The position numbers were made by a program, and so were the translations under genes. The notes under the pieces are model-generated. The model was not told where the DNA came from and ran no database searches. It saw only the letters and a list, made by a program, of their open reading frames with translations. From Liolophura sinensis (lineage: Eukaryota > Mollusca > Polyplacophora > Chitonida > Chitonidae): DNA of 64,000 nucleotides. Numbering within the stretch: the stretch's first letter is position 1; the number at the start of each line of letters is the position of its first letter. The stretch covers positions 1,056,001 to 1,120,000 of the forward strand of contig NC_088304.1 in the NCBI RefSeq assembly GCF_032854445.1, read 5' to 3'. Below are positions 30,895-63,219 of the stretch, piece by piece.

Positions 30895-31139
30895 ATAATA
30901 TTCAATACCAGCGATGTCTAATAAATTGCTATTAACACCACTGCATTTTCCCTTAGCCAGTTCTGCCTAACCTTTGGTGCTTGGGATGAAGGCGGGAGGG
31001 GGGTGGGGTGGTGGGAGGGGACGGAGGTGGTTGCTGTCGCTACTATATAAGCATTTACATGAACAGTTGGAGTAAATCCCGCACTGAAGTAAACTTACAA
31101 GAGGCCGTATTTCACCGGTTACGTGACCATTTGCCAACT
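30895..31139 (+). repeat. Rep-A copy with a G-rich insert
   Basis: TAATAAATTGCTATTAACAC, then TTTACATGAACAGTTGGAGT, AAGAGGCCGTATTTCACCGG and CCAACTATCACGCTGTCGTC follow the Rep-A order. A GGGAGGGGGGTGGGGTGGTG tract interrupts it near 30,990-31,030. The last block passes straight into the 48-bp array. Confidence 0.85.
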
Positions 31140-41600: not shown

Positions 41601-44600
41601 ATGTATATACCAGATCGCAATGAAATTTTGCACACACCATCCCAGTAATCCGGCGGACGTGGTATATCAAGGATTAACGTGCAGGTGCAGTTGTGGGCTA
41701 ATGGGCATGCGCAACCTGAAAATCGATCGATTTTGTAAATTTCATAAAAGGAGTACATTGTACATTGCACATTGCACATTGTACATCCAGAAAATCTAAA
41801 CTCTATGGAAAATGAAACAAAATAATTTACCAAGATTTGTAAAATCACCTGAATTTGTAAACAAAATAAGCATGTCCTGGAGTATGCAAAAGGTTTATTA
41901 AATGTAATTGTAAAACACCTACCCGAATATTTACACAGGCAAATCTAACAGGATTTGTTGAAAGTTATCTGAAAATGTAAAACCATCTAAGTGGTTCCAT
42001 ACGGGAATAAGAAGATTATTAGCATCTTCTCAATACATATACAGCCTTTTTTCGTCAGACAAGCACAACAGCAAGCAGAAACATTTACTACACGACAGTC
42101 CAAAAGTCGACCCAGGAGATTTAACCTACGAGGAAATGGAAATGTGAAATTTTGTTTTATGAAACAGGACAGGACAAGAACTAAGACAGACAGATAAAAT
42201 TACCATGGTTTCATATATTACCTATGTCGGTTGGCAGACACGCAAAATTTAAAACCTGTGTATAATATGATATAAAATCCGCCATATTTGTAGGTCACAA
42301 ATGGAAAAAGACCCAAATAACGTGGCGACCAATCGGATACTCTCGCACAAGTCGTCTCAGCCAATCACAACAGTGGTAAGTTCTTCAGGGAAAGATTTTT
42401 ACGCATATTTAAGCTTTACATTTTAGTTTCTCGGCGTAATTTATATTTTTACAAACTGCATGCCCATGCCTAGCTGTGCACGTGACACTCATAAGCAAAA
42501 CATCTTTAGTTAAACAACAATTGGTGAAGTATTATGGTGAACTGGAAGAGTTTTACCTTTGTTTTGGTCATAATTACTGAATGACAGTGTGGTTCTGTGA
42601 TAAAAAAAAAAGTGGTAAAACAACGAAATAAAAGTCATACAGTCACTTGTTACCCAGGATGACCTCTATTATGACCTTTGAACGCCTCCTTTCCACAGGT
42701 GGTCATTCAAACGCGCCTTTGACAAGTGGGCGGAGCAGACACCTCTGACGTTCTCTGACGTCAGCGGGACAGCTGACATCATGATCAAGTTTGTAAGGTC
42801 AGACCATGGCGACGGTCGTGGGAATGCCTTTGACGGCAGAGGTGAGAATTCCGCGTGTTTGTTTTATACATGGCTTAAGGTCTCAACCAGACCTCATAGG
42901 GCCTTGGCTCAACCAGGATGTTGCAACGTTAAATCTCAGCTCAGCTCGACAAAGTCAAACTGTTAGCCGGATATCCCTGGTTAATTAACTTAGTAGAGAC
43001 TGACCAGAAAGGCGTTTTTACGAAACGTTCAACATTAACCTGATGTTTGCCTGAACTTCCCGCTATAGCCATTCACAAGCCTCTTGAACACTTTCACCAA
43101 CACGTGACAAGAATCTTCAATTTGATTTTTTTATTTATTTGGTGTTTTACGCCTTACTCAAGAATATTTCACTTATACGACGGCGGACAGCATTATGGTG
43201 GGAGGAAACCGGGAAGAGCCCGGTGGAAACCCACGACCATCCGCGGGTTGCTGCCAGACATTCCCATTTACGACCGGAGAGGAAGCCAGCTTGAGCTAGA
43301 CTTGAACTCATAGCGGTCGCATTGGGGAGAGGCTTCTGGGTCATTACGCTGCGCTAGCGCGCTAACCAACTGAGCCACGGAGACCCCCAAGAATCCTCAA
43401 AGCCCGTTGTTTTATATACCACCAGCAAAGAAATGTCGATGTCAGAGCTCAAGACAAGGCTAAAATTCCCCTAAGCATACTCTTGTTCTTATGTCTTTGT
43501 CCTGAGCGTAGACTGTCTTTTTATTCCCGGTCATCACACAAAACTTCCGGTTGGACATCGAGGCCCACTTGCTCTGACTTTTAATAAATTGCAGTTAACA
43601 CCGTTGCATTCTTTTTACCTAACTGTACATAAGCCATGGCCGTACTTCACCGTTTACCTATCACCATTTGCCAGCAATCACACTGTCGTTGCTGCTCCAG
43701 TTTTGATAACTGGCAAATGGTCAAATGAAACCAATGAAATACGGCCTCTTATAACTTTACCTCAGATCGAGTTTTATTCTGACTGTTCATGTAAATGCTT
43801 ACAAGAAAGTCTCAATTTACATTCCCCTCGAACTCATTGCATAAGATACGGAAACTAGTGTACAATAAGGTCAACAAAGCTCTCACACCATGACTTTCTT
43901 TTAAAGAAAGGACTAACACAACTTTGATCAGGCTGAATCTTTATTCTCATATCAAACCTAAGCCCTACTAAGTGACATCCCATTTTCATTAATAGAAGAG
44001 AGAATAAATATTTCATTTTCTCCACTTTACTGGCTACTAGGGTAGTTTTACCCACATAGGCCCCAGTTCATGTTTAGAATAAATTAACTACTCCTACTGT
44101 CTTTCCTGTTTCCCTCTAAGGTGGTACTTTGGCACATGCGTTCTTCCCCGGCACTAGTGCCATTTCCGGTGACACTCACTTTGACGATGACGAGCAATGG
44201 ACGCTGAACACCGAGGATGGTACAAACCTGGAGATCGTGGCTGCTCATGAGTTCGGTCATGCCCTTGGGCTGGGCCACTCTAACGTCGCCCAGGCCCTGA
44301 TGGCGCCTTACTACCAGGGGTATGACCCCAACTTTAAACTCCATAAAGACGACATCCAAGCCATACAGCACCTCTACGGTGAGTCTGCAGGGTTCGTACC
44401 CATTTTCATTTCTGCAATGGTTCCTACTTTATCATCTGTTCGCAAAGTATACGCAAACCTGAGTCGTCAACATCTAAATGAAAAAATCCAATTGGATGTA
44501 TAGGGCTTACGTGATGATACTATAAGGTGGAAAAGCTTTTGAAGATCACAATTGTATTATTATCTTATAGTAATATATGCTCAGTTGGTCAGCGCGCTAG

Positions 44601-47600
44601 CGCAGCATAATGACCCAGGAGTCTCTCACCAATGCGGTCGCTGTGAGTTCAAGTCCAGTTCATGCTAGCTTCCTCTCCGGTCGTATGTGGGAAGGTCTGC
44701 CAGAAACCTGCGGATGGTCGTGGGTTTTCCCCAAGCTCTGCCAGGTTTCCTCCCACCACAATGCTGGTCGCCGTCGTATAAGTGAGAAGAGCGTAAAACA
44801 CCAATCAAATAAATAAATAAATAGAGTAATATATAGTTATAAATGTATTAATAGATATAGATTATGATGATTATCTTCTTTCAGGAGGTCCAGGTCGGCC
44901 GCGAACAACTCCCAGGCCAAGGGTGACGTCACGACCACGTGTGACGTTACGGCCGCGCGTCACACGACGCCCAACACGTCGCCCCTCTTCCGGTCGATTC
45001 TGTAATCTCAAATTTGACGCCGTCATCAAAGGTTAGAAGTTTATCCTGATTTAAAAAGTATTTGTAAACTAATTAATTGAAATGACAGCGTGTAAAGGAA
45101 ACACCTGCAATTTCCGATCACAACAACCACCACAAAGTAACGTCAAGGAAATGAAAAACTATGAACATTTATTTCCAACAGCACATGACGGAAGCACGTA
45201 CGCCTTCCGATCACATGACATCTACAAACTAACGTCCACAGGCGGAGTTAGCCGAGGATTCCCGAAGAGGGCGAACACCGTGTTTCAGAGTGCACCAATC
45301 AACATCGATGCAGCGGCGTACTCGCCGTGGTCCAGAAAGACTTATATGTTTAAAGGTGAGCTTTCGGTACCACATTTAAATGGTTTCAGTTTTTCATATA
45401 ACAGATGAAGGCCTACATCATGTTAACAGTATTTAATTAAACTCAGATTGAGAGTAGTCAGATCTCTCCAACATGGGGAAAGCTGCCTGCGTATATCTTG
45501 TATTTTTGCAAGTTGGAAGGTGGTGGGACTTGTGGAAGTTTATTGGTTCCCATTCAAACCATGATTCTTCACAGACGTCTGAATTTTGTCCTGTTCTATG
45601 TTGTAGGAAGCCGGTTGTGGAAGTATACTGGTTTCCGGTTAGACTCCGATTACCCGAAGGACATCCGGGCTACTAACTTCCCAACACGTCCCAAGGCGGC
45701 GCTTGTTTGGCGAGATGGACGAGTCTATTTATTCCGGGTGGGTACGCGTATATCGATGGTGCTGGTTTCTATATAACCTATTCATAAAACCCAGACGCCA
45801 GATAAACCAAAACTGAATGTCACTCGGCTTCAGCATGGGGAAAATAACCAGAGCAGCGACAGTGGTGTGATAATTGGCAAATGGTCACACGTAAGCGGTG
45901 AAATATGGCCTCTTGTTTTGCTCAGTTAGGGCTCTTTTGTAACTGCTCATATAAATGCTTAAGTACATGTAGTAGCAAGTTAAACAACCCCTTAGCCCCA
46001 TATCTTCAGCAGAATTAGGTGAAAACGGCAGTGATGATAATTTATTACACATCACTGGTCTATTCAACTCCATTTAATACACAGTAACATGAAAACAATG
46101 CAAATCAACCTGACAAGGGGGCTCTCAGCCCACAAGCAGGAATTAAGGGTTTCCCTAACTGAGGTAAATTGACAAGAGGCCAGATTTCACCGATTAAGTG
46201 TGACCATTTGCCAACTACCACAATGTCGTCGATGCGCTAGTTTTACTCTATATGTTGTAGTCCTTTTATATCGGGGAAACGCAGAAAATCCCACGTACGT
46301 CTTAACATTTTAGTAATGTTCTAACTACTTAGATTAAATCAGTTTATGCAAACTCATCCATACCCTCCATCTGACGCAATGTTTACAGGGACGTCAGTTC
46401 TGGGTGTTTGACGAGTACCGGAACAGCATACCCCAGGGCTATCCTCTAGACACGAGGAGGTACTGGAGAGGGATCCCCAACAATGTGGAGGCCGCTGTCA
46501 GGTGGAATGATGGATACACCTATTTCTTCAAGGGCTCAAAGTAAGACTTAATAACAAGGAACTCTTTTTGGCGTTAAAGGTACAAACGGTTCTACTGTAT
46601 CACATGACAGATCACATGATACAGAAGGAACTGTTTTTGGCGATAAAACAGTTCGAGCTTTATATTTATGGACAAGGGGTTGCTAAGTTACCTTTAGGTC
46701 AAGAGAGGCTTATATTTCATGAAAAGGGGCTTGTTGTGTACTTCTAGGTTAAGAGAGGCTTATATTTCATGGAAAGAGGCTTGCTGTGTACTGGGTGAAG
46801 AGAGGCTTATATTTCATGTAAAAGGGATTGCTGTGTACTTCTAGGTTAAGAGAGGCTTAGATTTTATGAAAAAGGGACTGCTGTGTACTTCTAGATTAAG
46901 AGAGGCTTATATTTCATGAAAAAGGCGTTGCTATGTACTTCTAGGTTAAGACAGCCCTGTATTTCTCGAGCAAGGGATTTGTGTTTCTCTGGGTGAAGAG
47001 ATCCTTGTATTTCATAGACCTGGAAACACTGTGAATCTCTAGGTCAAGACACCCTTGTACTTATTCCACAAGGAAACCTCGTGTATCTTCAGGATGAAAA
47101 GACGTTGTAAAATCACATTTTTTTTTACCTAATTCTGCTTAAGCCATGGTGCTACTCTATGCTGTGCGTTTTTAATTATATTGTATTCCAGCATAAACCA
47201 GGACGGCCGGAGGACTAAACATCCCCGAGGCCTAGTCCCTTTACATTGTTTTAATGTGATTGTATGTTAAATGTGATGACAATACAGCATTTTGAGCAAT
47301 TCTAGACCAGTGACGCCTAATGTATTGCAATTAACATCACTGCATTTTTTTACCCAATTCTGCTTAAGTCATGGTGCTGGTTGTGGGGGGGGGGGGGGGG
47401 GGGGGGGGCGTGTAAATTGCTAATTTTCATGCGTTTACATGAACAGTTAGAATAAAAGCCAGCTGTGGTAAATTGACTATATTTCACAGGCTTCGTGTGA
47501 CCATTTACCTACTGTCACACTGTTGTCACTGCTCTGGATTTACTCTCTATGCTGTACGTCTTTAATTATATTCCTGCATAAACCAAGGTTGTTTTAATGT

Positions 47601-49058
47601 AATTGTATGTTAAATGTCATGACAATACAGCATTTTGAGTAATTCGAGATCAGTGATATCTAATGTATTGCTATTAACATCACTGCGTTTTTGTTTAACC
47701 TAATTCTGCTTTAGCCACGGTGATAGATTGCGTGTAAATTGCTCATATTTATGCATGTACATGAACAGAATAAAACCGGGCTTTGCATTTCTTGGGCAAG
47801 GACACCTTGTGTGTCTCTGCATTAACGGCATTGCAGTTCTTGGGCAAGGACACCTTGTGTGTCTCTGTATTAACGGCATTGCATTTCTTGGGCAAGGACA
47901 CCTTGTGTGTCTCTGCATTAACGGCATTGCAGTTCTTGGGCAAGGACACCTTGTGTGTCTCTGCATTAACGGCATTGCATTTCTTGGGCAAGGACACCTT
48001 GTGTGTCTCTGCATTAACGGCATTGCAGTTCTTGGGCAATAACACCTTGTGTGTCTCTGCATTCAGGGCTTTGCATTGCTTGGGCAATGACACCTTGTGT
48101 GTTTCTGCATTAAGGGCATTGCATTTGTTGGACAACGACACCTTGTGTGTGTCTACATTAACGGCTTTACATTTCTTGGGCAAAACACCTTGTGTGTCTC
48201 TGCATTAAGGGCTTAGCATTTCTTGGACAAGGACACCTTGAGTGTCTGCATTAACGGCTTTGCGTTTCTTGGGCAAGAACACCTTGTGTGTGTCTGCATG
48301 AAGGGCTTGGCATTTGTTGGACAAGGACACCTTGTGTCTCTGCATTAGGGGCTTTGCATTTTTTTGGACAAGGACACCTTGTGTGTCTCTGCATTAACGG
48401 CTTTGCCTTTCTTGGACAATATTTACGAGAATTATGTGTGCATCTACGACAGTGTAGCGCATGGTAATTTCTCTTTAAGTTTTTGACACAGAAATGTGGG
48501 TCTCTCAAAAAATATATTTAACATAATTATACAATACATAAGACAGGCAATAGAAAGAGTAAAACAGTGTGTTATCTGGCAGATGGTCACACGTCATCGG
48601 TGAAATACGGTCTCTTGTCAACGAACCTCAGTCAGCGTTTCAGTTTAACTGTTCATATAAATGTGTACTAAAAAATCTCAATTTTCTAATGTTTAAACAG
48701 TAGCCAATTACACGCCCTCTAACAACATGTCTTAAGCCGAACCAAGTGAAAGGAATGCAGTGATGCAAACTGCGGTTTATAAGACATCAGTGGCTTATCA
48801 TTACTCCAAACGCGGTGTCATGAATAACACATGAATCACATCATTATAGATACATAATTTACACATGAAAAGCGTGTCGGCGTCATTCTATTAAATCTTC
48901 CTAGACATTGCCATTAAAAGCCTAATTTCTAATACCTTGTTTTCTTTTTTCCCCCCAGTTATTTCAAGTTTAGTGACTACTATCGCCGCAAGGTAGGAGG
49001 TTACCCAAAACCGAAGGCCGCTCCTTGGCTGGGGTGTGGATCGCGGACTCCCAAATAA
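38534..49058 (+). CDS. Secreted matrix metalloproteinase (11 exons, 551 aa)
   Basis: Zinc endopeptidase of the matrixin (M10A) family, made as a secreted latent enzyme that cleaves extracellular matrix and other outside proteins. Exons: 38534-38671, 41026-41120, 41280-41515, 42294-42375, 42699-42841, 44121-44378, 44885-45031, 45182-45355, 45607-45737, 46389-46540, 48959-49058. All introns are GT-AG and the frame is kept throughout. Domains: signal peptide about 1-26; propeptide with YLEKFGYL (48-55) and cysteine switch PRCGFPD (Cys105); an Arg-alternating linker (126-144); catalytic domain 158-318 with [12 protein letters not shown] (His274, Glu275, His278, His284) and Met-turn Met292; an Arg/Pro hinge to 356; hemopexin domain between Cys357 and Cys545. 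All catalytic residues are present. The propeptide is longer than usual because of the linker. There are no fibronectin repeats and no membrane anchor. The exact MMP subtype cannot be told; exon 1 is the least certain. Confidence 0.93.
39505..39590 (-). repeat. Rep-A fragment in metalloproteinase intron 1
   Basis: On the - strand: ATTGCAATTGACAACACTGT, then TTTTTACCTAATTTTGTTGAAGCC, the last blocks of Rep-A. The remainder of intron 1 (38,672-41,025) is AT-rich and includes the Rep-B copy at 39.9 kb. Confidence 0.7.
39893..40080 (+). repeat. Rep-B interspersed repeat copy in intron 1
   Basis: CAGACATTCGTATATCAGTC, AGACGTTTGAAGTCAATAAT and CTCAACAGTTTTCAGTGATG, then TCAGAAAGACGCA, parallel the copy at 16.2 kb block for block. 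Confidence 0.75.
41026..41120 (+). CDS. Metalloproteinase exon 2 (propeptide start)
   Basis: Acceptor TTTAAAG, donor GTAAAT, phase 0 to 2. Encodes AYLEKFGYL, the typical first helix of matrixin propeptides, and ends in the codon that completes as Arg of the REFQRF motif with exon 3. Confidence 0.9.
41280..41515 (+). CDS. Metalloproteinase exon 3 (cysteine switch)
   Basis: Acceptor TCAAAAG, donor GTATAA. Encodes [15 protein letters not shown], then [11 protein letters not shown] with the zinc-blocking Cys105, followed by 19 residues with Arg at every second place. A CAG at 41,311-41,313 could look like an acceptor but would put PRCGFPD out of frame. Confidence 0.95.
41548..41740. mobile_element. 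Possible DNA-transposon end in intron 3
   Basis: CAGTGCAACAAAAGCAAGTT, then CCCCC, and an AAATTTTGCACACACCATCC block resemble ends of Tc1/mariner-type elements. No inverted partner or transposase frame is visible nearby, so this may be a solo fragment or chance. Confidence 0.25.
42294..42375 (+). CDS. Metalloproteinase exon 4 (start of catalytic domain)
   Basis: Acceptor TTTGTAG, donor GTAAGT, phase 1 to 2. Encodes [17 protein letters not shown], the first beta strand of the mature enzyme (family pattern KWxKxxLTYRI), and LSQSQQ before the first helix. Confidence 0.93.
42699..42841 (+). CDS. Metalloproteinase exon 5 (structural zinc site)
   Basis: Acceptor TTCCACAG, donor GTGAGA, phase 2 to 1. 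Encodes [19 protein letters not shown] and then a loop with HGDG (His220, Asp222), two ligands of the structural zinc, and FDGRG, part of the calcium loop. Confidence 0.95.
43121..43387 (-). mobile_element. SINE-1 copy in metalloproteinase intron 5
   Basis: 267 bp in reverse orientation, bounded by a 13-bp target duplication with one mismatch (CAAGAATCTTCAA at 43,108-43,120; CAAGAATCCTCAA at 43,388-43,400). The head reads GGGTCTCCGTGGCTCAGTTG on the - strand; the tail lies at the low end (TTTTTTTATTTATTTGG). Confidence 0.95.
43585..43815. repeat. Rep-A foldback (two copies head to head)
   Basis: A + strand part (CATTTGCCAGCAATCACACT, then GTCGTTGCTGCTCCAGTTTT) meets, within a few bases, a - strand part (AACTGGCAAATGGTCAAATG, then GAAATACGGCCTCTTATAAC). 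The two arms can pair over about 30 bp either side. Confidence 0.8.
44121..44378 (+). CDS. Metalloproteinase exon 6 (active site)
   Basis: Acceptor CCCTCTAAG, donor GTGAGT, phase 1 to 1. Encodes [22 protein letters not shown] and the [12 protein letters not shown] zinc helix with Met292 in ALMAP, ending at IQHLYG. Confidence 0.98.
44579..44824 (+). mobile_element. SINE-1 copy in metalloproteinase intron 6, 5' truncated
   Basis: 246 bp flanked by AGTAATATAT at 44,569-44,578 and 44,825-44,834. It starts inside the A box (GCTCAGTTGGTCAGCGCGCT), so the first ~10 bp of the head are missing. It has a small deletion near the tail. It fills about half of this 506-bp intron, on the same strand as the gene. 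Confidence 0.93.
44885..45031 (+). CDS. Metalloproteinase exon 7 (hinge)
   Basis: Acceptor CTTTCAG, donor GTTAGA, phase 1 to 1. The hinge contains repeated RPRVT-type units ([17 protein letters not shown]) and ends with [12 protein letters not shown], where Cys357 opens the hemopexin domain. Confidence 0.93.
45182..45355 (+). CDS. Metalloproteinase exon 8 (hemopexin blade I-II)
   Basis: Acceptor CCAACAG, donor GTGAGC, phase 1 to 1. Encodes [15 protein letters not shown], then INIDAAAYS and KTYMFKG, the repeated DAA...YxFKG pattern of hemopexin blades. Confidence 0.95.
45607..45737 (+). CDS. Metalloproteinase exon 9 (hemopexin blade II-III)
   Basis: Acceptor TGTTGTAG, donor GTGGGT, phase 1 to 0. 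Encodes [17 protein letters not shown] and [19 protein letters not shown] four bases further on would break the frame of exon 10. Confidence 0.93.
45820..46080 (-). repeat. Rep-A copy in metalloproteinase intron 9
   Basis: On the - strand: GGAGTTGAATAGACCAGTGA, TTTTCACCTAATTCTGCTGA, CTTAAGCATTTATATGAGCA, GAGGCCATATTTCACCGC and CCAATTATCACACCACTGTC blocks in Rep-A order. Confidence 0.85.
46146..46265 (+). repeat. Rep-A copy in metalloproteinase intron 9
   Basis: CCCTAACTGAGGTAAATTGA, CAAGAGGCCAGATTTCACCG, CCATTTGCCAACTACCACAA. It lies opposite in orientation to the copy just before it, so intron 9 carries a spaced inverted pair. Confidence 0.8.
46389..46540 (+). CDS. Metalloproteinase exon 10 (hemopexin blade III-IV)
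   Basis: Acceptor GTTTACAG, donor GTAAGA, phase 0 to 2. Encodes [19 protein letters not shown] and [18 protein letters not shown]. Confidence 0.95.
46680..47070 (+). repeat. ~50-bp tandem repeat in metalloproteinase intron 10
   Basis: About seven diverged copies of a unit with AAGAGAGGCTTATATTTCAT and TGTGTACTTCTAGGTT. The copies decay toward the right end. Confidence 0.85.
47105..47780 (+). repeat. Rep-A units head to tail in intron 10
   Basis: The AATTCTGCTTAAGCC block recurs near 47,130, 47,355 and 47,700, the last two about 345 bp apart, which gives the unit length. The first unit has an internal deletion. A run of 24 G (47,385-47,408) sits where other copies have GGGGGCGTG. The last unit ends at GAACAGAATAAAACCGGGC, where the next array begins. 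Confidence 0.85.
47783..48425 (+). repeat. 48-bp minisatellite in intron 10, about 13 copies
   Basis: Unit TTGCAGTTCTTGGGCAAGGA, then CACCTTGTGTGTCTCTGCATTAACGGCA. Divergence rises toward the right. Frames of up to 144 codons are open on both strands because 48 is a multiple of 3; not coding. Confidence 0.95.
48540..48815 (-). repeat. Rep-A copy in intron 10, reverse
   Basis: On the - strand: CCACTGATGTCTTATAAACC, TTGGTTCGGCTTAAGACATG, CCGATGACGTGTGACCATCT and GCCAGATAACACACTG in order. Together with 47,105-47,780 it brackets the 48-bp array with inverted Rep-A copies. Confidence 0.8.
48959..49058 (+). CDS. Metalloproteinase exon 11 (C-terminus)
   Basis: Acceptor after a pyrimidine run, CCCCCCAG. 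Encodes [18 protein letters not shown] and WLGC with Cys545, which should pair with Cys357. Stop TAA at 49,056-49,058. Confidence 0.95.
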
Positions 49059-52942: not shown

Positions 52943-53949
52943 TTAGTGTTTGTGTGTGGTGCGGGATCTCATGGCATAGTGTGGTGTCTTTGCTGGGGTC
53001 TGCTGCTGCTGTTGTTGTTGTTGCTGAACAGTCTGTGGTGTTGCTGGTGTTACAACATGAGGCGTGACCTGGGGAGAAGCAGTGCCTGGCGTCGCCACTG
53101 CTTGTGCTTGAGACAGCACTGGTAGAGTCTGTGTCAGTGGCTGTGCCTGAACTGTTTGCTGTTGCGCCACCTGCGCAGGTTGAGCCTGCTGTCCCACTGA
53201 AGCCAGCGTTACAGTATGAGGCGCAGTGGCAGGTGCAGCCTGTTGCGTAGCTGCAGCAGGGGCCTGAGACGCCAATAGCGCTGACGCAGTCGCTCTCTGA
53301 ATCTGTGCCTGGATCTGTGGTGAGTCTGTTGCAGCTGTCACTACCACTTGTTGTGCGGCGACCGGTGGTGTCTGTGCCGCAATGGTGTGCGTGCGTCCGA
53401 TTCCTGTCACCTGACTAGGTTGCACCTGCTGATGGACGACCTGAGTGACACGCGCCTGAGGCACAGCATGCGCAATGTTCGTCAATTTGGCCTGTCCTAC
53501 CGACACCGTCTGTAATGGCTGCATCTGCACAGTTGGGGATCCAGCAGAAGTTACATTCACAGACTGCACCACGCCCGTGGGGGTACTTTGTGGGGACGCG
53601 GCTGTCAGGCTCAATGTTGCCACGGACGGCTGGGTTGTCACCGACACCTGTGAGCCTAATGTCAACGAAGAAGCCTGGGTGATGGCCTGCATCTGTGTTG
53701 TGGCTGGAGCCGTTGCCAGAGAGACTTTCGCCACCATGGGCTGGGCTTGTGTCACCGTGGCGATTAGTGTGGGCTGGGTAGTCTGTGTGCTGGGGGCCAC
53801 AGACGTGATGATCTGCTGGATTGTAGCCCCCTGATTCTGCTGTTGCTGCTGTTTAACAAACTGCTGCAGGGTAATGGTGGGCAGAGGCCGGTTGATCTGA
53901 ATAGCCCCCAGGGGCACCTGGCCCTTCCCAGTAACCTGCTGAGCCACAC
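52943..53949 (-). CDS. EP400-like gene last exon
   Basis: Acceptor GTTTCTCAG, phase 1. It encodes about 335 residues of Gln/Thr/Ala/Val-rich sequence (ITLQQFVKQQQQQNQG near its start, a QTVQQQQQQQQQ run near its end) and the basic C-terminus. Stop TAA at 52,945-52,943. Higher G+C than the surrounding introns agrees with a coding role. Confidence 0.92.
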
Positions 53950-56900
53950 CTGAGAAACAACATCATTAACATCAGTTAACACTGGTAACTTGAAAATTCA
54001 TACCATTAACATCAGCGTTACATTTGCAAATTGAAAACAAATTGAACTAACATCTGTGTTACATTTGTAACTTGAAAACACACTGAACTAACATCAGTGT
54101 AACATTTGTAAATCCATATATTCCACATCTAGATCATAACAGCACCTGGGAGATAACTCTTTTTTATCTAATTTTAAATCAGCTTCACATCTGCATCATA
54201 AACCTACAAACTAATTATATCAAAGTTAGGAGGTTAGAAATTACCAATCCATGAAGTGCAGGTTTTCAGAAAAAAAAAATGGACTGTTTATCAACCTCCA
54301 TAAAACTGCTTGTAAAACACTTTAGCATGGGACATAGACTGGGAAGTTATAATTTATGAAAAAAAGACCTGGAACAAAAAGGAAAAAACTAATCAAAGGG
54401 AAACCCACGACCATCTGCAGATTGCGGGCAGACCTTCCCACATTTAGGCTGGATTTGAACTCACAGCAACCAGCATTGCTGGGAAGCTACGGAGTCATTG
54501 TGCCGTGCTGGTGTGCTAACGACCTCGGCCACGGAGTCATTGCGCCGTGCTGGTGTGCTAACGCCCTCGGCCACGGAGTCATTGCGCCGTGCCGGTGTGC
54601 TAACGCCCTCGGCCACGGAGTCATTGCGCCGTGCTGGTGTGCTAACGCCCGAGGCCAGGGAGTCATTGCGCCGTGCTGGTGTGCTAACGCCCAAGGCCAG
54701 GGAAATTTGATAATCATGTTGCTTATGGATAAGTATACTGTCACATACAACTGTGCGGTGTGTAAACTGATTGTATTATGGCACATAAGCTCAACCGCCC
54801 GCTGGAACATGTACATACACCTCAGGTCAAGGGAGATCACCCTGATACATACCCATCTTCGCTGGGTGCAGGTTACGCTGAAGCAGACGGAAATGATTTA
54901 ACTTTTGTTGCTGATGTAACTGGTTGACAGTCAGATTTTTCCCTGAAATTAGAAAAGAATACATGTGTGTGTAGCATTTTATGGCAGTTATGGATCAGTA
55001 TGATTGAACGGTAATGCCAGAGGTACAATACTAGGAAGAAGCATGGTACAATGGGGGGATTCCATGAATACCCTGCCCAAGAAGGGGGTGAACCCACACC
55101 TCATGAGCCTCATAAAAAAAAAAGTGTTGTGAAGGCTTCATGAGGCTGGGCCCTGCACAACACCTACTTGTGGGATGAACACATTTTACATCATCTAAAC
55201 ACTACTACGTGTATTATAAACTAAACACATGGATTCTCACTTCCACTGGCTAATAAAGTATGCCTATGGCAAACACCAACAATGCACATTGAGGTCAATA
55301 TTTACCTGTCGCAGTTTTCTGCCCTGTCATGCTGACGTTGATGTTCACTGGCCCCACCTGGGTGACAGGTATGGTGACACTCGACACGCAGGGGGCAGAC
55401 ACTGTCTTAACCAGGGTAGCCACAGGGCTCTGGGCACTTGATGCCTGACCCACCTGCTGTACTGGAGCAATAATCTGAAAACCAAGGGGAGATAATTACA
55501 GGACAGGTGTGGATTGACTACATTTACCGAGACACTTATTTACTCTCAATGTACATATCGATGTATGTATGCTTGGCGTTTTACCTCGTACTTTACAATT
55601 TTTCAGTCATATGACCAGGAGGAGTCATTAGGTATACATATACTGTCAGTGTTAAATACAAAAATGTTTGGAGAGCCCTTATCTGAATTTGAGAAAATTT
55701 TCGTCCAGTACAGTGAGGCAAAACGGACCAAATTAGCCTGGGGAGTGAAGGAAATACATTCTCAGTCATTTCAAACTTTTTCTGCACATATTATAAAATG
55801 TATATCACTGACATCTAGCAGGGAGTTAGTTATATAATAAATTTTACAAAATAAACACTTAATATTTTTAGCAATAAACATATTCGAGTTTTTCACATTT
55901 TATCCCATTTGAATATTTTGTATCTATCCCTGACTGGGTCTTCATGTGGCAGGGCAAGTCCATGCCACCATTGAAATATTACGCCAAAGACACCAGGCAT
56001 GACACCGTCGCCCACCCAGTCACATTATACAGACACGAGGGTGGTTCGCGGGACCCAGTGTTCTGAATGGATGATTGGTGAAAAGGTAGGGATGAAAACT
56101 GTTTCACTTGGACTGGTGGAAGCAGAAGGGTTAAGGTTGGCGCTCTGAATGAAGCAGGATGAAGACGACTTCGGGTGTTCTGCTAGGCGGGTACCTCGAC
56201 ACAACACAAAGTGGTGTCAAGGGCATAAGGCCTGAGAGTTAATCTGCGAGTTCATTTAGCACAACTCCTGAAACTGACAACACAGGGATGTGACTCTATA
56301 CTCGCTTCAACATCAACTATTTATTTAAATAAACTGTTGTGTAACTCTAAGGTCAAGAACCAATCAGTCATACAACCGCAGTTGGCACTATGAAAGAAGT
56401 AACTCGGTCAACTGGGGCCTTCCTCTATGAATTGCATGTGTTTGCAGCTACACACCGAAAAAAAAAGGCTTAAGCTTATATGTAGGCTTTGGGTTTTGGG
56501 AACCATTAGGTGTGTGTACATATTCTGTGTCTTCTTGTGGCAGGGCGATTCCATACCACCAAAGTGCTGCCACCACTGAAGTATCATGCCGACTTGACAC
56601 CAGACATGACACCCCACCCAGGCCAACCAGTCCTGTTTCCTTGCTCAGTGCTGAGGGCCATGTGAGGCAGAAAGAAGTATCAGTTTTAAAGCCTGTGGTA
56701 TGACCAGACCCAGGTTTTATCCTGTGTCTCCCGACGAGCCAAAAGGCAAGGATCAACAAGAGGAAGTCTGAAGAACATCAACATTATGAAAGATAAAAGT
56801 GGCATGGCTAAACTGAAATAACAACCTTGAGCTTTACTGCTAGATAGCAAACAAGTACAACACAACAAAATTAAGAAATGCCAAGCAAACAAAAACTGAA

Positions 56901-59900
56901 AAATGATGAAAGTCTTAAAAGCTAAGCAAAACAAGGGAGGCAAGTCAAAATGTTTGGTATTTTGAGCTCTTCAGAGGGATTGTGGTCATCCAATGTGGTT
57001 TAAAGGTTCACCCATGCCACTGTAAAATTATACGCATTTGAATACAATACAACACACAACCATTTACCGGTATGTCTGAATTTATAAACATTTGTATGAT
57101 ACAAAGTTTTGACTAAATTAGAGGTCATCATTTTCATGATTTTTTGTTTTTGTTTTTTTATGAGCTCTTAGAAATGAGGGAAGACCAAACATTTTGGCCC
57201 CTAGAAAAGCAGTAAAGGAAGACAAGAAAAACAAAGCGACCGTACATTTACCTGCTGCACATGGCCGGCTGTTGACTGTTTGTTGTAGGCCTGCTGACGC
57301 TTGATCAATGCCTGCACTTCTGCCTCCGTCAGTCGCTGGATAGGCTTCACTGGTGTCTTCTGTTAACACAGTTCACACTCATGAAGTCTGATCAGAACTT
57401 TTTTTAATCAGAAAAACCATAAAACATATGGCCTTTATGCACCTTTGAAAGTGCCTTTTTACATACCAAACTATTGGTGAAATACAATACTCAAACTGTT
57501 CAATGTATATCAACAGAGCAGAATAGCCTCATGCCCTTCCAGGCAAGCATTGACAACATCAGACTTGTTACACGTACATACACCGAAATTGAAAGTGAAA
57601 GCCAAAGTGTGATGATTGGTCATATCAATCAATCGCTGGCATACACATACATTAATAAATACATTTTCAACAACCATATTGCTTAGCTAAACCAATCATT
57701 TAATGGATATGCAACCTAAAATCAACCTGAAAGGTTTTTGCTTTATTTTATTTTTTTTTTTTTTATTAAACATTCCAATGCAGTTTTAGGGGTTTCAATG
57801 CTTATGAAGTGACCCTGATCTACCAAGCTTCCCTTTACCCTGAAAAGTGTGTGCTTCAGATTCTGGTTAAACATTTCCACACAGTTCTAAAGGGTTCAAA
57901 ATAATGCATACAAAGTGGCTGCAACCTCTGCACTGACCTGTCCTATAGCAGTGACCAGCTGAGAGGTTAAGACAGGTTTCTGACCGCTGGCCACATGTAG
58001 CTGATGAGCACCTGTCTGACCCTGCTGCAGCTGCTGACGGATCTGCTGCTGCTGCTGCTGTTGCTTCAACTGCTGCCGACGCATCTCCTGTGAACAACAA
58101 CAACATTACAACATTATATTACAACATATACAGAAAGTAAATCTGCATGCTCATTCAATTACTGTTTATTTATATCACTGTGGTATTGAAGCTAAACAAA
58201 CATTTTTTTTTTTTGACTATCTACAACAGATGTAAGGTTTTACAAGTGGAGTAAACTACTGGCCTTTCACACCTAAATACTCCCAAATTCATGCTTTTTA
58301 GACTCAAGGGTCATTGTAGTCAGAAATTTGTTTCACACACTGAGTGCATCATTGAGGGTTTAACACATTTGTGTTTGCTGTGTAACCCGATGCCACTGAA
58401 CCTTTCTTCATACCTCGTTGAATCCAGAGAGCGCGCATTCTCAGGATGAACTATCAGAATGCCCATTCTCAGGATGAACTATCGGGATGCGCATTCTCAG
58501 GACGAACTATCGGGATGCGCATTCTCAGGACGAACTATCGGGATGCGCATTCTCAGGACGAACTATCGGGATGCGCATTCTCAGGACGAACTATCGGGAT
58601 GCGCATTCTCAGGACGAACTATCGGGATGCGCATTCTCTCAGGACGAACTATCGGGATGCGCATTCTCAGGACGAACTATCGGGATGCGCATTCTCAGGA
58701 CGAACTATCGGAATGCGCATTCTCAGGACGAACTATCGGAATGCGCATTCTCAGGACGAACTATCGGGATGCGCATTCTCAGGATGAACTATCACAATGC
58801 GCATTCTCAGGATGAACTATCAGAATGCACATTCTCAGGATGAACTATCACAATGCGCATTCTCAGAATGAACTATCACAATGCGCATTCTCAGGATGAA
58901 ATATCAGAATGCACATTCTCAGGATGAACTATCGGGATGCGCATTCTCAGGATGAACTATCAGAATGCGCATTCTCAGGATGAACTATCAGAATGCGCAT
59001 TCTCAGGATGAACTATCACAATGCACATTCTCAGGATGAACTATCGGGATGCGCATTCTCAGGATGAACTATCGGGATGCGCATTCTCAGGATGAACTAT
59101 CGGAATGCACATTCTCAGGATGAACTATCACAATGCACATTCTCAGGATGAACTATCGGGATGCGCATTCTCAGGATGAACTATCGGGATGCGCATTCTC
59201 AGGATGAACTATCAGAATGCGCATTCTCAGGATGAACTATCAGAATGCGCATTCTCAGGATGAACTATCACAATGCGCATTCTCAGGATGAACTATCACA
59301 ATGCGCATTCTCAGGATGAAATATCAGAATGCACATTCTCAGGATGAACTATCACAATGCGCATTTTCAGGATGAAATATCACAATGCACATTCTCAGGA
59401 TGAACTATCGGGATGCGCATTCTCAGGATGAACTATCGGGATGCACATTCTCAGGATGAACTATCACAATGCGCATTCTCAGGATGAACTATGGGAATGT
59501 GCATTCTCAGGATCTGACACAAAGAATTCTAAATAAAGAAGATGAGGCAAAAACAGCATATTTCAGGCTAGCATTCTCTTTCACTCCCTCATTCATTATA
59601 GACCAATCAACGGCAAGCATAGGTACGTCAAAGTTGCGTATGTATAACGTCATGCATTGTTATGTGACATAGAAATGTGTAAGTTCACTGTACACGTATT
59701 ATAACATCATACTGCTGAGCTCAGTGAATGATTGTAGACATATCATAGAGATACTCACATTAAATGAATAATAGCAGCCATATCATGGAGATACTCAAAC
59801 GAAGTGAATGACTGCAGCCATATCGTGGAGATACTCACATGGAGTGAATGATTGCGGACATATCATGGAGATAATCCTGCTGAGTGAATGATTGCGAACA

Positions 59901-62900
59901 TATCGTGGAGATACATCGAGTGAATGATAGCAGACATATGGTGGAGATACTTACACTGAGTTAATGATTGTGGACATATCGTGGAGATAATCATGCTGAG
60001 CGAATGATTGCGGACATATCGTGGAGATACATTGAGTGAATGAGTCCAGACATAAGGTGGAGATACTCACATGGAGTGAATGATTGCGGACATATCGTGG
60101 AGATAATCCTGCTGAGTGAATGATTGCGGACATATCGTGGAGATACATCGAGTGAATGATCGCAGACATATGGTGGAGATACTCACACTCAGTGAATGAT
60201 TGTGTACATATGGTGGAGATACTCACACTGAGTTAATGATTGTGGACATATGGTGGAGATACTCACATTGAAGGGTATTTTCTGAGTAAGGATCTGCCTG
60301 GGGTGCAGAGCGTTGGGTTTGAGGATCGTCTGTTGTTGTTGTCTGAGGTGTGACAGTTGAGCCTGTGTCAGAGGTTTACTGCCCTGTGACAGCTGCTGTT
60401 GTACTGATGTCACTAAATGGAGGAATAATCAAATTCAGAAAATTAATTAACACTAACATACGCGTTGTTAACATATGCATTGAAAAAATTGGATTTCAAA
60501 TTAAACTGGATGGATCACAAAATGAATCTCAACAGAACATTTCATCAAAACTAAGCAATATTTTGAGCAGACTGTATGGAAACCAAAAGTTTGATGGACA
60601 GACAGACAAGGCAGAAAAGACACACGGTATTGTGGGATTACAAAACAAGTCAAATGAGCCATAAGAAGGAACCACATATCAAACTTCAGTCTGCATTTGT
60701 AACCACCTATTTAGTAGCACTTCATCTTCTGATATCCTGCCAGACTTTCATTCAAAATTCTCCATGCGCCAAGTTCTGCAGGTCTAAATTCTACATTTGG
60801 ATAATCCATGTTGTGGTAAAGTAACAGATCTGTAGGAAACACATGAATGCAAAACTTCAGTTCAATACATCCAGAACTGAATTTGGTCATTTACAGCAAA
60901 CAACATGCACAAAGAGCATCAGCGATGGCACTTTCCACTTGTGTCATTGTGCTTTATATGCATGTAAAACTTCAGCTCAATACAGAGAACTTGTCAGAAT
61001 TTGTATAAATATGGTCAGTTCAAGTGTTAACCATGAGCCAACTGTCCCCAATCTCCAGCTTAACTCTTGTGCCACATGAATATGGAGGCTGTGTATCAGT
61101 GTACACAATCAGATGTTGCTGTACACAAGAGTAATCCACCTGTAAGACGGTGACCAGCATTTAGGTGGGAGAAGACCGGACAGAGCCCGGGACAAAGATG
61201 TTATCTTCTTAATTCAATTGGCAATCACAATATGTTCAGTATCATCAGCCTCAGCAGAAACAGTAGGTATCTTCTCTTGTACAAGCTTGTTTCAACACCA
61301 AATGTTTTACCTCCTGTGACTGAAGTAGCAGAGGCCACCGTCCTCTGTGCGGCTAACTGGGCAGCCGTCAGACTGGCTGTAGTGACCACTGTGGCCGTAC
61401 CAGATGTGAGATTAGCCCTGGCCTGAGCTTGGGCCTGTGCCTGGTTTACAGCAGTGGTCAGTTCCTGCATAGTCAGAGCTGTGCCCTGCACCGTCCTCTG
61501 ACCTCTGACCGCCTGGCTCACCGTCTGAGGGGACAGAGTCTTCTAGGAGAGAAGAGAAGAAAGGACAGGCAACAATGAATCACCATGCTGAAGGTTTTCT
61601 TTCCAACAGTTCCCTACCCCGATCTACATATCTGATTACTGAGATAGGATCTTTCAAAAAAGATGTGTTGTTACTTTATAGCAGAAAAAGAAGTTTATTC
61701 TGGTATTATGAACTACTTCAATTAATATTCTTCAGCACCAGAAATACAGATATTCTGCCAGCAGTTTGCCTAAACAATCAACTAAGTCTTGTCTCGCTGT
61801 TTAATAAACTGTTAACATCCCAAAGGGAAGTCACTCTTAAGGGAATTCAATAAAAGTCACCCGAAACTAGCAACATTTGAAACAAGGCTTCTTCTCCTAT
61901 AAAATACTTATCTTACAGGTTCAGTAAACGAGAAAGGAGAAGATTTGAGTGTACAAAGTTTGTGCTTCAGACAGAATAGATTTAACCTGCTGAAGTGATA
62001 AAAGTGGGGCTAAAGAGTAAATTTCATCGTCTTCTGGAACTCCTCTCTAAATCTACAGAAATATGCTAACAATTTCAGTAATTTGTCCGTAAGCTTCATA
62101 TACAGAAGCAAACAAAAACAAATGCAGCCACACGTACACGTATGAACTGAGAACTACAACTCTCCAGTATAAAGCTCTTGTTAATTCATAACACAGGCCT
62201 ACATGCTGAGTCTTTTCTTTGCATTAGTATAGATGAAATATACTTCGATATTCTCCTAAACAGCAGCTGTCCAAGTATTAAACAAAATTTGCTACTCTCT
62301 TTACCAGTTTTACCAGAGACCACTGTTAAACACTTGCAGAATTATACTACAAATATGGCACAATATTTTCACACTTCCCAATAAGCTTCAGTTAAAGACT
62401 ATCAAACAAATCCTATATCAAGTTTACAGCTAAGGTGAACAAAGCAGTAATAAAAACAACGAAAAATTTGAATAAACACAACAATTCTCAAAATTTTGTC
62501 TCACACCTTTTGGCTGAAGAACATTTAAATATTTCAACATTCACTTCAAAGACGTTCAGCGTAGGGCAAAAGTTATTTACTCAACCCATTTATTTGGTTT
62601 AACTACCTCAACACTTTGGCGGTGTGAAAGGCACGAATATGACCTCTACAAGAGCTGTATATTCATCATGCAAGCAGAAATTGTTCCCCGCCACTAAGAA
62701 GGCTGAGGTGACAAATAACTACGAAAGACAACAAAGCAATTCCGAAAGTAAAAAGGCTAAATCAAAGGAAAGTGAAAGTATCACAGAAAGACCAAGACAC
62801 TGACAGTGAAAGCATAGAAACATGATGAGGCCAAAGGGGGAAACAGAAAATATCACAGAAAACCAAGAAACTGACAGTGAAAGCATAGAAACATGATGAG

Positions 62901-63219
62901 GCCAAAGGGGGAAACAGAAAGTATCACAGAAAAACCAAGACACTGAGAGTGAAAGCACAGAAACATGATGAGGCCAAAGGGGGAAACAGAAAGTGAAAGC
63001 AACACAGCACTACCAAGGCAGATCACTCACTACAGTGGAAGGCTGGGCCAGAGCCCCAGTCTGCTGGCTCATTCGTTTGTTGATGGCTGCAAAGGTGGTG
63101 CCGGACACCCCCGGTGCAGTGTTGACAACAATGTTACTAGTGCTGCCCCCTGGGCGCGTGATGGAGACAGCGGGTACTGTCCCGGGGCTCACCCCAGGTT
63201 TCTGCAGTGCTCCAGTCTG
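52943..63219 (-). CDS. Gln/Thr/Ala-rich nuclear protein, EP400/Domino-like C-terminus (7 exons, 5' end outside)
   Basis: The last 666 codons of a large protein. Exons in coding order: 63219-63031, 61542-61311, 60412-60267, 58087-57938, 57359-57252, 55474-55306, 53949-52943. Every junction is GT-AG and the phases agree (0,1,0,0,0,1). The product is low-complexity and Gln, Thr, Ala, Val and Pro-rich, with charged islands: AAINKRMSQQTG, LTQAQLSHLRQQQQTI, EMRRQQLKQQQ, IQRLTEAEVQALIKRQQAYN and the C-terminus KTPHYAMRSRTTHKH. No folded domain, zinc finger or membrane segment is seen. From memory, the combination of Q-runs, TQAQL/LRQQQ pieces and a KTP-containing basic end resembles the tail of EP400 (p400), the SWI/SNF-type ATPase of the NuA4/TIP60 complex, whose ATPase and SANT domains would lie upstream, outside this window. 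Other Q-rich coactivators could look alike. The gene model is firm; the name is not. Confidence 0.7.
54393..54500 (-). mobile_element. SINE-1 copy in last intron of the EP400-like gene, diverged
   Basis: GGGAAACCCACGACCATCTG, GCAGACCTTCCCACATTTAG and GATTTGAACTCACAGCAACC match SINE-1 on the - strand. The head passes into a 42-bp tandem array. Confidence 0.85.
54494..54704 (+). repeat. 42-bp array of a SINE-1 head, 5 copies
   Basis: Unit GGCCACGGAGTCATTGCGCC, then GTGCTGGTGTGCTAACGCCCTC. It equals the SINE-1 head (GTCATTACGCTGCGCTAGCG, then CGCTAACCGACTGAGCCACGGAG on +), including the pol III A box. The open frames through it are artefacts. Confidence 0.92.
55306..55474 (-). CDS. EP400-like gene exon
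   Basis: Acceptor GTTTTCAG, donor GTAAAT, phase 0 to 1. Encodes IIAPVQQVGQASSAQSPVAT, then a Val/Thr-rich stretch with VSSVTIPVTQVG and NINVSMTGQKTATG. Confidence 0.87.
55571..55631 (-). mobile_element. SINE-2 tail fragment in an intron
   Basis: GCTTGGCGTTTTACCTCGTA, then CTTTACAATTTTTCAGTCATATGACCAGG, matches the SINE-2 tail at 32.3 kb on the - strand. Nothing of the head remains. Confidence 0.75.
55640..57245. other. Intron of the EP400-like gene
   Basis: Two stretches, near 55,920-56,020 and 56,535-56,620, share TGTGGCAGGGC, CATGCCACCATTGAAATATT-like and AGACACCAGGCATGACACC-like blocks, so they are diverged copies of an unnamed repeat. No exon is supported. Confidence 0.45.
57252..57359 (-). 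CDS. EP400-like gene exon
   Basis: 36 codons; acceptor TTAACAG, donor GTAAAT, phase 0 to 0. Encodes KTPVKPIQRLTEAEVQALIK, the most charged, helix-like stretch of the in-window protein, followed by RQQAYNKQ. Confidence 0.88.
57938..58087 (-). CDS. EP400-like gene exon, Gln-rich
   Basis: Acceptor TTCACAG, donor GTCAGT, phase 0 to 0, 50 codons. Encodes EMRRQQLKQQQQQQQ, then HVASGQKPVLTSQLVTAIGQ. The poly-Gln is coded by CAG repeats and may vary in length. Confidence 0.85.
58200..58432. other. Intron flank, nothing recognised
   Basis: A T-run near 58,204-58,215 and unique sequence up to the 28-bp array. Confidence 0.4.
58433..59515 (+). repeat. 28-bp minisatellite in an intron, about 38 copies
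   Basis: Unit GATGCGCATTCTCAGGACGA, then ACTATCGG. The left third has the GACGAACTATCGGGATG form, nearly uniform; the right part mixes GATGAACTATCACAATG and other variants, so the left part was homogenised more recently. A single 2-bp insertion (TCTCTC) is near 58,635. Confidence 0.96.
59715..60266 (-). repeat. Tandem repeat of the intron's own 5' splice site
   Basis: On the - strand each unit (about 35-45 bp) reads GTGAGTATCTCCACxATATG, TCCxCAATCATTCACT. The first unit is the functional donor at 60,266-60,261; further GTGAGTATC copies start at 60,226, 60,186, 60,070, 59,838 and 59,758, with a GTAAGTATC near 59,954. Units lacking the GTGAG part (ATGTATCTCC, AGGATTATCTCC) alternate with these. 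Confidence 0.9.
60267..60412 (-). CDS. EP400-like gene exon before a repeated splice donor
   Basis: Acceptor CCATTTAG, donor GTGAGTATC, phase 1 to 0. Encodes TSVQQQLSQGSKPLTQAQL, HLRQQQQTILKPNALHP and ILTQKIPFN. The donor and the following intron sequence are the first unit of the tandem array at 59,715-60,266. Confidence 0.85.
60420..61142. other. Intron of the EP400-like gene
   Basis: Two blocks sharing TGCAAAACTTCAGxTCAATACA (near 60,848 and 50,286) and GTAAAACTTCAGCTCAATAC (60,963) suggest another low-copy dispersed repeat. No exon is supported. Confidence 0.4.
61143..61197 (-). mobile_element. SINE-1 fragment in an intron
   Basis: AAGACGGTGACCAGCATTTA, then GGTGGGAGAAGACCGGACAGAGCCCGGG, corresponds to the middle of SINE-1 on the - strand. 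Confidence 0.65.
61311..61542 (-). CDS. EP400-like gene exon
   Basis: Acceptor CTCCTAG, donor GTAAAA, phase 0 to 1. Encodes KTLSPQTVSQAV, an Ala/Gln stretch (NQAQAQAQARAN) and TASLTAAQLAAQRTVASA. Confidence 0.85.
61560..62760. other. Intron of the EP400-like gene, nothing recognised
   Basis: AT-rich unique sequence. Open frames of 68-92 codons are unsupported. Confidence 0.4.
62765..63003 (+). repeat. 71-bp tandem repeat in an intron, about 3.3 copies
   Basis: Unit ATCACAGAAAACCAAGACAC, then TGACAGTGAAAGCATAGAAACATGATGAGG, CCAAAGGGGGAAACAGAAAGT. It ends about 25 bp from the donor of the first in-window exon. Confidence 0.93.
63031..63219 (-). CDS. EP400-like gene, first exon in window
   Basis: 63 codons; acceptor GTTAACAG, donor GTGAGT, phase 0 to 0. 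Starts QTGALQKPG and ends with MSQQTGALAQPSTV, so QTGAL occurs twice. A CAGCAG at the acceptor allows a one-codon shift. At least one more exon must lie beyond the window. Confidence 0.85.

What the first reader, a model, noticed from the sequence alone, without database searches (positions are those of the whole stretch)
59715..60412. An intron's 5' splice site has been tandemly amplified into a ladder of decoy donors
The donor of the exon at 60,412-60,267 reads AAT|GTGAGTATCTCCACCATATG. The next ~500 bp of intron repeat this start, giving at least five more copies of GTGAGTATC plus one GTAAGTATC. All can in principle base-pair with U1 snRNA as well as the real site. The seen fact is the repetition. 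It is an inference that only the first is used, or that the ladder buffers or modulates splicing. If an inner donor is used, the reading frame runs on for 20-30 codons (IPFNVSISTICPQSLTQ...) before a stop.
Basis: partly seen in the sequence, partly recalled or inferred. Interest (0 to 1): 0.8.

Follow-up and report, generated by a model that had tools for sequence, protein, structure and literature searches.

The report
Splice-site-bearing minisatellite in a chiton gene
In a chiton's domino-type chromatin-remodelling gene, a short repeat begins exactly where one intron begins, so that copies of the splice signal recur along the first half-kilobase of the intron; this is most likely a locally grown, tolerated repeat of a kind already described in lancelets and humans.

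Summary
The minus-strand donor at 60266 heads a local minisatellite of 14 units (36-40 bp, 116-bp higher-order period, ending near 59720). Seven of 14 units carry GTRAGTATC: the real donor, five GTGAGTATC copies and one GTAAGTATC; the word occurs nowhere else in the window. Each inner copy pairs with U1 at least as well as the real site (-7.4 to -8.4 against -7.4 kcal/mol). Use of any of the six would create a premature stop after 13 or 25 residues, with four or five exon junctions still downstream. Only the first donor keeps the eight-exon frame.

The host is the chiton Liolophura sinensis (published as L. japonica): scaffold number and three scaffold lengths match. The gene is a domino-type (SRCAP/EP400-family) remodeller. 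Searches found the array at one place in the 609-Mb genome, so it is no dispersed satellite. Donor words are not enriched among 131 sampled arrays, and 1 of 7 exactly modelled donors lies in an array in a gene span 11.9% covered by arrays, so no donor-targeting process is needed.

Best reading: a tolerated minisatellite grown from, or up to, a donor, like lancelet "mirages" and human IFI6. Buffering or regulation is untested. Known kind; no molluscan case seen in my searches.

The parts
60267..60412 (-). coding exon (146 nt; its first 2 nt complete a codon, ends in phase 0, ...KIPFN)
   Evidence: gene model of 8 exons with one open frame
60258..60266 (-). real 5' splice site, unit 1 (AAT|GTGAGTATC; U1 duplex -7.4)
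   Evidence: only array donor that keeps the frame
59723..60273 (-). minisatellite, 14 units of 36-40 bp, 116-bp higher-order period; TRF edge reaches 7 nt into the exon
   Evidence: TRF; unit table; one place found in the genome
60218..60226 (-). inner donor copy 2 (U1 -8.4); use gives TGA across the junction after 13 residues
60178..60186 (-). inner donor copy 3 (U1 -8.4); stop after 25 residues
60062..60070 (-). inner donor copy 4 (U1 -7.5); stop after 25 residues
59946..59954 (-). inner donor copy 5, GTAAGTATC (U1 -8.3); stop after 25 residues
59830..59838 (-). inner donor copy 6 (U1 -7.5); stop after 25 residues
59750..59758 (-). inner donor copy 7 (U1 -7.4); stop after 25 residues
58433..59513 (-). 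second, different minisatellite in the same intron (28 bp x 38.5, 93% matches); reaches neither donor nor acceptor
58088..60266 (-). host intron, 2179 nt, GT...CAG
57938..58087 (-). next coding exon (EMRRQQLKQQQQQQQ...), phase 0
52943..63219 (-). 3' part of a domino-type (SRCAP/EP400 family) gene: exons 63219-63031, 61542-61311, 60412-60267, 58087-57938, 57359-57252, 55474-55306, 54942-54853, 53949-52943
   Evidence: HSA, SNF2, Helicase_C and SANT-like exons upstream in L005-L008

Best explanation
A locally grown intronic minisatellite whose first unit contains the real 5' splice site. A segment starting at the donor was duplicated head to tail and then spread and homogenised by slippage, unequal exchange or conversion, in a genome rich in such arrays. 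Its upstream growth is held at the exon edge by selection on the coding sequence and the donor. The first donor is used because it lies next to the short coding exon (exon definition) and because products from the others are stopped early and probably destroyed. The inner copies are passive, mostly unused decoys. Shown: array, register, U1 complementarity (computed), frame consequences, no second place found in the genome. Inferred: growth mechanism, exclusive use of donor 1, decay of mis-spliced RNA, absence of function.
For: Array and register. Of the seven array donors only 60266 gives a frame-consistent 8-exon model. Unit found at one place in the genome, so local origin. Arrays cover 38,433 of 264,000 sampled bp and 6,732 of 56,498 bp (11.9%) of the gene span; 1 of 7 exact donors, 0 of 8 exact acceptors and 0 of 19 candidate upstream exon ORFs overlap an array (the 19 were picked by me as coding-looking, which biases against array-bearing ones). 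GTRAGT recurs in 6 of 131 arrays against a mean of 4.2 over the 180 letter permutations, about 50th of 180. Unit 1 is 97% identical to unit 8 over a 32-nt core, so the donor-bearing unit takes part in turnover. Lancelet globin RT-PCR suggests that such arrays do not disturb splicing (PMC3087553 passages).
Against: The inner donors are as strong as or stronger than the real one, so silence needs exon definition or masking, neither shown. In at least one studied case of two competing donors the intron-proximal, stronger one is preferred (DOK7, PMC5585400 passages), which would favour inner copies here. Of 5 intronic arrays in the exact gene model only 0.04 would be expected to start within 7 nt of a donor if placed at random, so the register may not be pure accident. 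No RNA evidence was available.
Confidence: 0.7

Rival explanations
1. The ladder is a brake: some transcripts use inner donors, carry premature stops and are decayed, so that repeat number tunes the output of this gene, perhaps only of the isoform that includes this 3' part.
For: 6 of 6 inner donors give a premature stop at least 518 nt before the last junction, with 4 (60226) or 5 (the other five) junctions wholly downstream; 6 of 6 have U1 pairing equal to or better than the real donor. Precedent for alternative 5' splice site choice coupled to decay: Hps1 under Ptbp1, where the upstream site is the weaker one (PMC4222953 passages).
Against: Retention of the whole intron also stops after 25 residues, so the stops are not a special design. 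No RNA, no conservation data.
Confidence: 0.13
2. A donor-seeking amplification process (true splice-site amplification) exists in this genome, and this is one product of it.
For: Register of the array with the donor; 0.04 expected by random placement among 5 arrays.
Against: No enrichment of GTRAGT among 131 arrays; donors in arrays not above coverage (1 of 7 exact; 0 of 19 hand-picked candidate ORFs). The sample is 264 kb; the genome-wide ladder count did not complete.
Confidence: 0.07
3. The exon really ends at an inner donor or elsewhere, and the array is partly exonic.
For: Inner donors are strong.
Against: 6 of 6 inner donors bring a stop, whereas 60266 joins two phase-0 ends of an open frame of 696 residues.
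Confidence: 0.04
4. The donor landed in a pre-existing dispersed satellite, or the array is an assembly artefact.
For: The sampled genome is rich in minisatellites.
Against: Unit pattern only in this array and one BLAST place for array plus exon; long HiFi reads.
Confidence: 0.03

Closest known systems
Lancelet 'mirage' minisatellites (Adh3, globins BflGb6 and BflGb9, TnC, PGBD5)
   Same: Tandem repeats at exon-intron boundaries that multiply splice signals; reported not to disturb mRNA splicing; unit sizes overlap (Adh3 10-72 bp) (PMC3087553 and PMC3902484 passages).
   Different: Chiton, not lancelet; the unit starts at the donor and shares at most 3 contiguous exonic nt with donor-bearing units (5 with one altered unit), whereas the globin repeats carry exon sequence; 116-bp higher-order structure.
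[quoted passage not shown] 1995; only the title seen, in reference lists; content recalled)
   Same: A minisatellite next to an exon end whose units hold donors.
   Different: There (recalled) 12-bp units and inner donors used in mRNA; here 36-40-bp units, and each inner donor would introduce a premature stop.
Hps1 exon 18 tandem 5' splice sites controlled by Ptbp1 (PMC4222953 passages)
   Same: Upstream weaker donor gives full-length protein, downstream donor gives an NMD substrate.
   Different: One alternative site, experimentally regulated; the passages seen mention no repeat array.
Ordinary intronic minisatellites of the same gene, e.g. 58433-59513
   Same: Tandem growth inside an intron.
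   Different: No splice site of the gene model lies in it.

Membership tests
Mirage minisatellite (lancelet) | tandem units carry the splice signal of a real boundary | tested here: met
   7 of 14 units carry GTRAGTATC, unit 1 being the real donor
Mirage minisatellite (lancelet) | unit spans the boundary and includes exon sequence | tested here: inconclusive
   longest shared exon end with donor-bearing units 3 nt, as good at 66 of 1979 exonic positions (3.3%); 5 nt with one altered unit; TRF edge 7 nt inside the exon. At most a few exonic nt.
Mirage minisatellite (lancelet) | copy number unstable or polymorphic | not testable with these tools
   one copy found in the assembly; no reads
Mirage minisatellite (lancelet) | normal mRNA splicing despite repeats | not testable with these tools
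   no RNA data; only frame logic
Mirage minisatellite (lancelet) | host is a cephalochordate (all published cases seen here) | tested here: not met
   assembly identity with chiton Liolophura; molluscan-type mitochondrial gene order
IFI6-type donor minisatellite | units hold a donor consensus next to an exon end | tested here: met
   7 of 14 units
IFI6-type donor minisatellite | inner donors used in mature transcripts | not testable with these tools
   no RNA data; 6 of 6 inner donors give stops
Domino/SRCAP/EP400 remodeller (host gene) | HSA, SNF2 ATPase, helicase C, SANT/Myb | tested here: met
   HSA 4.6e-16, SNF2 1.8e-21, Helicase_C 3.2e-06; Myb below its cut-off, but the same exon matches p400 at 1.9e-25; SNF2 exon closest to SRCAP, 3.3e-47
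Dispersed satellite family | unit present at unrelated loci | tested here: not met
   with the limits the tool states

The most novel reading that the evidence does not exclude
The ladder is a copy-number-tunable poison: six equal or stronger donors, each followed by a stop, compete with the real one and are only partly silenced (five of six sit in a predicted local hairpin made with the tail of the preceding unit). It would thereby set how much of the SANT- and polyQ-containing form of domino is made relative to a shorter form, varying between individuals with repeat number. That domino has such long and short forms in flies is recalled; in chitons it is not known to me.
Probability: 0.07. 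Interest if true: 0.8.

Novelty: new member of a known kind. Interest (0 to 1): 0.38.

Why it matters
It shows that donor-bearing minisatellites are not confined to lancelets or primates; in my searches (of whose hits only the listed ones were seen) none was reported for a mollusc. It is a natural test of how splicing picks one of seven near-equal donors 40-116 nt apart, with clean read-outs (each wrong choice carries a stop) and public RNA-seq and HiFi data. If repeat number varies between animals, it gives a natural dose series of decoy donors.

Tried and rejected
Lancelet origin: first guess because of the mirages; rejected. The GFP search gave 0 matches in this genome, but 0 of its 14 control genomes rang either, so it shows nothing by itself. 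The mitochondrial gene order and the assembly statistics settled it.

EP400 proper: the exons in the window found nothing in Pfam (0 families for the exon next to the array and for the last exon) or in solved structures (last exon, all eight). The SNF2 exon is closer to SRCAP and the SANT exon to p400, so the gene is called domino-type.

Exon sequence as part of the repeat: inconclusive, a few nt at most.

Array as cryptic exons or mini-introns: nine AG sites in the array have 8-10 pyrimidines in the 15 nt upstream; the real acceptor has 10. Not pursued.

RNA structure: local 25-nt folds give -1.1 kcal/mol for the real donor and -3.4, -5.4, -5.4, 0.0, -5.4, -4.7 for the inner ones. Against random upstream 15-mers from the gene's introns the four strongest are reached by 49-86 of 1000 and 60226 by 224 of 1000; the mean of six is reached by 5 of 1000, but units are homologous and not independent. 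Wider folding predicts all seven donors paired, the real one too, and other real donors of the gene have local folds down to -6.3. Kept only as a lead.

Rfam (gathering thresholds) and tRNA scans of the window: nothing. A chiton genome comparison (PMC12005716, term search of the main text) does not contain the word minisatellite.

Genome-wide count of GTRAGT ladders: asked four times, never answered. Haemocyanin family search: not answered, dropped. The original Adh3 paper is not held. A paper search on competing 5' splice sites found none; a reworded one listed seven, two of which I looked into. A Conus intron paper (PMC3862624) headed the list and was not opened.
Full report
OBSERVATION. On the minus strand the exon 60412-60267 ends AAT|GTGAGTATCTCCACCATATG and the next coding exon starts at 58087. 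GTRAGTATC occurs seven times in the 64-kb window, all between 60266 and 59750; shuffles give 0.88 on average and 0 of 100 reach seven. They are GTGAGTATC at 60266, 60226, 60186, 60070, 59838, 59758 and GTAAGTATC at 59954. TRF reports one array, 59723-60273, with periods 40, 116 and 232. Cut by script it has 14 units; 7 of 14 carry the donor word, the other seven have lost GTGA or read GGATTATC, TGATTATC or TTGAGTATC.

GENE. Eight exons in the window splice into one open frame of 696 residues with standard acceptors and GT donors, ending in a glutamine-rich C-terminus. The exon pair around this intron meets in phase 0. No family was found for these exons alone. In the adjoining 80 kb (L005-L012) the same strand carries HSA (4.6e-16), SNF2 (1.8e-21) and Helicase_C (3.2e-06) matches and a Myb/SANT match below its Pfam cut-off whose exon is closest to p400 (1.9e-25); the SNF2 exon is closest to SRCAP (3.3e-47; p400 1.1e-10). 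An SRCAP-like ATPase with a p400-like SANT is what I recall of fly domino, so I call it domino-type. That these exons belong to the same gene as those of the window is inferred from strand and neighbourhood.

ORGANISM. The window lies in G000, 609,464,459 bp in 632 contigs, at C10:1056001-1120000. C1, C2 and C3 are 96,433,062, 28,395,274 and 27,489,247 bp. The chiton assembly GCA_032854445.1 has 632 scaffolds, 609,495,693 bp, longest 96,433,062, scaffold_10 28,395,274 and scaffold_11 27,489,247 (PMC11068029, passages). The totals differ by 31 kb, and C10 (36,632,598) differs by 5 kb from scaffold_6, the nearest that I saw listed. A correction renames the species Liolophura sinensis (PMC12441733, whole text). 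The mitochondrial contig shows K-A-R-N-I and M-C-Y-W-Q-G-E tRNA blocks and an order that I recall as ancestral molluscan; PMC7003433 passages speak of the MCYWQGE cluster and a conserved order in chitons.

IS IT A SATELLITE OR A LOCAL ARRAY? The pattern GTGAGTATCTCCACNATATG hits four places in the whole genome, all in this array. BLAST of exon plus array finds only its own place (the tool warns that only best candidates are scored and that simple repeats and very common words are skipped). In the 264 kb of fetched nuclear DNA the best outside match to the array is 20 nt at E 0.03. So the array most likely grew here, and no second copy or haplotype was found in the assembly.

IS THE DONOR SPECIAL? 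Minisatellites (period 7 or more) cover 38,433 of 264,000 sampled bp (window plus L005-L024); GTRAGT recurs in 6 of 131 arrays against a mean of 4.2 over its 180 letter permutations, about 50th of 180. In the gene span, arrays cover 6,732 of 56,498 bp (11.9%); 1 of 7 exact donors, 0 of 8 exact acceptors and 0 of 19 candidate upstream exon ORFs overlap an array, and one further donor (63030) has an array starting about 36 nt downstream. The 19 were picked by me as coding-looking among the ORFs of 90 aa or more, which biases against array-bearing ones; the 7 exact donors are the cleaner count. One donor in seven is about what coverage would give. On the other side, for the 5 arrays in exactly modelled introns only 0.04 would start within 7 nt of a donor by random placement. 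Seeding at the donor and chance arrival cannot be told apart here; selection against growth into the exon would produce the same sharp edge.

ANATOMY. Over a 32-nt core, unit 1 is 97% identical to unit 8 and 91% to unit 2, and shares the tail of unit 8; unit 13 near the far end is the most diverged, with 6, 12 and 14 next: the donor-bearing unit takes part in turnover. Whether exon sequence is part of the unit is inconclusive: 3 nt shared with donor-bearing units, as good at 66 of 1979 exonic positions (3.3%), 5 nt with one altered unit, TRF edge 7 nt inside the exon.

WHAT IT WOULD DO. Duplex energies with the U1 5' end (recalled sequence): real donor -7.4; inner -8.4, -8.4, -7.5, -8.3, -7.5, -7.4 in order. 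Six of six inner donors lead to a stop: after 13 residues for 60226, where the TGA spans the junction, and after 25 for the rest, at least 518 nt before the last junction. The script counts 5 junctions downstream for each; for 60226 one of these is the junction inside the stop codon, so 4 lie wholly downstream. By the usual rule for nonsense-mediated decay (established knowledge) such RNAs would be destroyed. Retention of the whole intron stops at the same place, so this is not evidence of design. Five of six inner donors form a predicted local hairpin with the tail of the preceding unit, the real one hardly, but the statistics are weak and wider folds do not discriminate.

MECHANISM I COMMIT TO. 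A tolerated minisatellite anchored at a donor; the first donor wins by exon definition (a 146-nt exon against 186-654 nt if an inner donor were used), and wrong choices are silent because they decay. Likelihood 0.7. Against it: near-equal donors need not favour the exon-side one; in DOK7 the intron-proximal, stronger donor is preferred (PMC5585400 passages). A regulatory brake gets 0.13, donor-seeking amplification 0.07.

KNOWN KINDS. [quoted passage not shown] The human IFI6 minisatellite is titled as providing multiple splice donor sites (title in reference lists; details recalled). This chiton array works like them; the host differs, exon content of the unit is inconclusive, and polymorphism and splicing could not be tested, so I file it as a further case of donor-bearing minisatellites, not as a lancelet mirage. 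Paper searches (0 papers; 4 of 4 listed; 25 of 510 listed; 2 of 2; 15 of 83 listed) showed no molluscan case among the listed titles and abstracts; many subscription papers are not held.

On re-reading the calls I changed the exon-content test from 'not met' to 'inconclusive', the junction count for 60226 from five to four, and the list of diverged units, and added the DOK7 counter-example and the selection bias of the 19 ORFs.

Noticed in passing
window and L005-L024 (264 kb): Minisatellites of period 7 or more cover 14.6% of the sampled DNA, whereas the published repeat table lists 0.08% for simple repeats and others and 14.04% 'unclassified'; the unclassified share may be largely minisatellite.
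   Followed up: partly
window 31138-32094; L010 2945-4107; L012 7459-7581: A 46-48-bp unit (..CTGTCGTCRCTGCTCTGG..TATGCTGT..) recurs in three separate arrays within 110 kb, apparently a dispersed minisatellite family, unlike the donor array (likeness judged by eye).
   Followed up: no
G000 contig C99 (108,685 bp) and C632 (15,209 bp): C99 holds seven head-to-tail COX1 copies about 15.4-15.6 kb apart, apparently a mitochondrial multimer contig with units somewhat longer than the single contig C632.
   Followed up: no
window 44120-45408 (+): Exons of a matrix metalloproteinase gene (Peptidase_M10 4e-34; hemopexin match below its cut-off) on the other strand, with arrays further on at 46660-47015 and 47779-48419.
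   Followed up: no
L005-L008 with window 52943-63219 (-): Apparently one gene combines an SRCAP-like ATPase exon and a p400-like SANT exon, like fly domino (recalled).
   Followed up: partly
unit junctions in window 59715-60266 (-): The tail and head of neighbouring units are partly complementary (ATTCAC/GTGAGT), giving small predicted hairpins over five of six inner donors.
   Followed up: partly
window 62767-62994 (-): Another array (72 bp x 3.2) starts about 36 nt downstream of the donor at 63030 of the same gene without including it.
   Followed up: no
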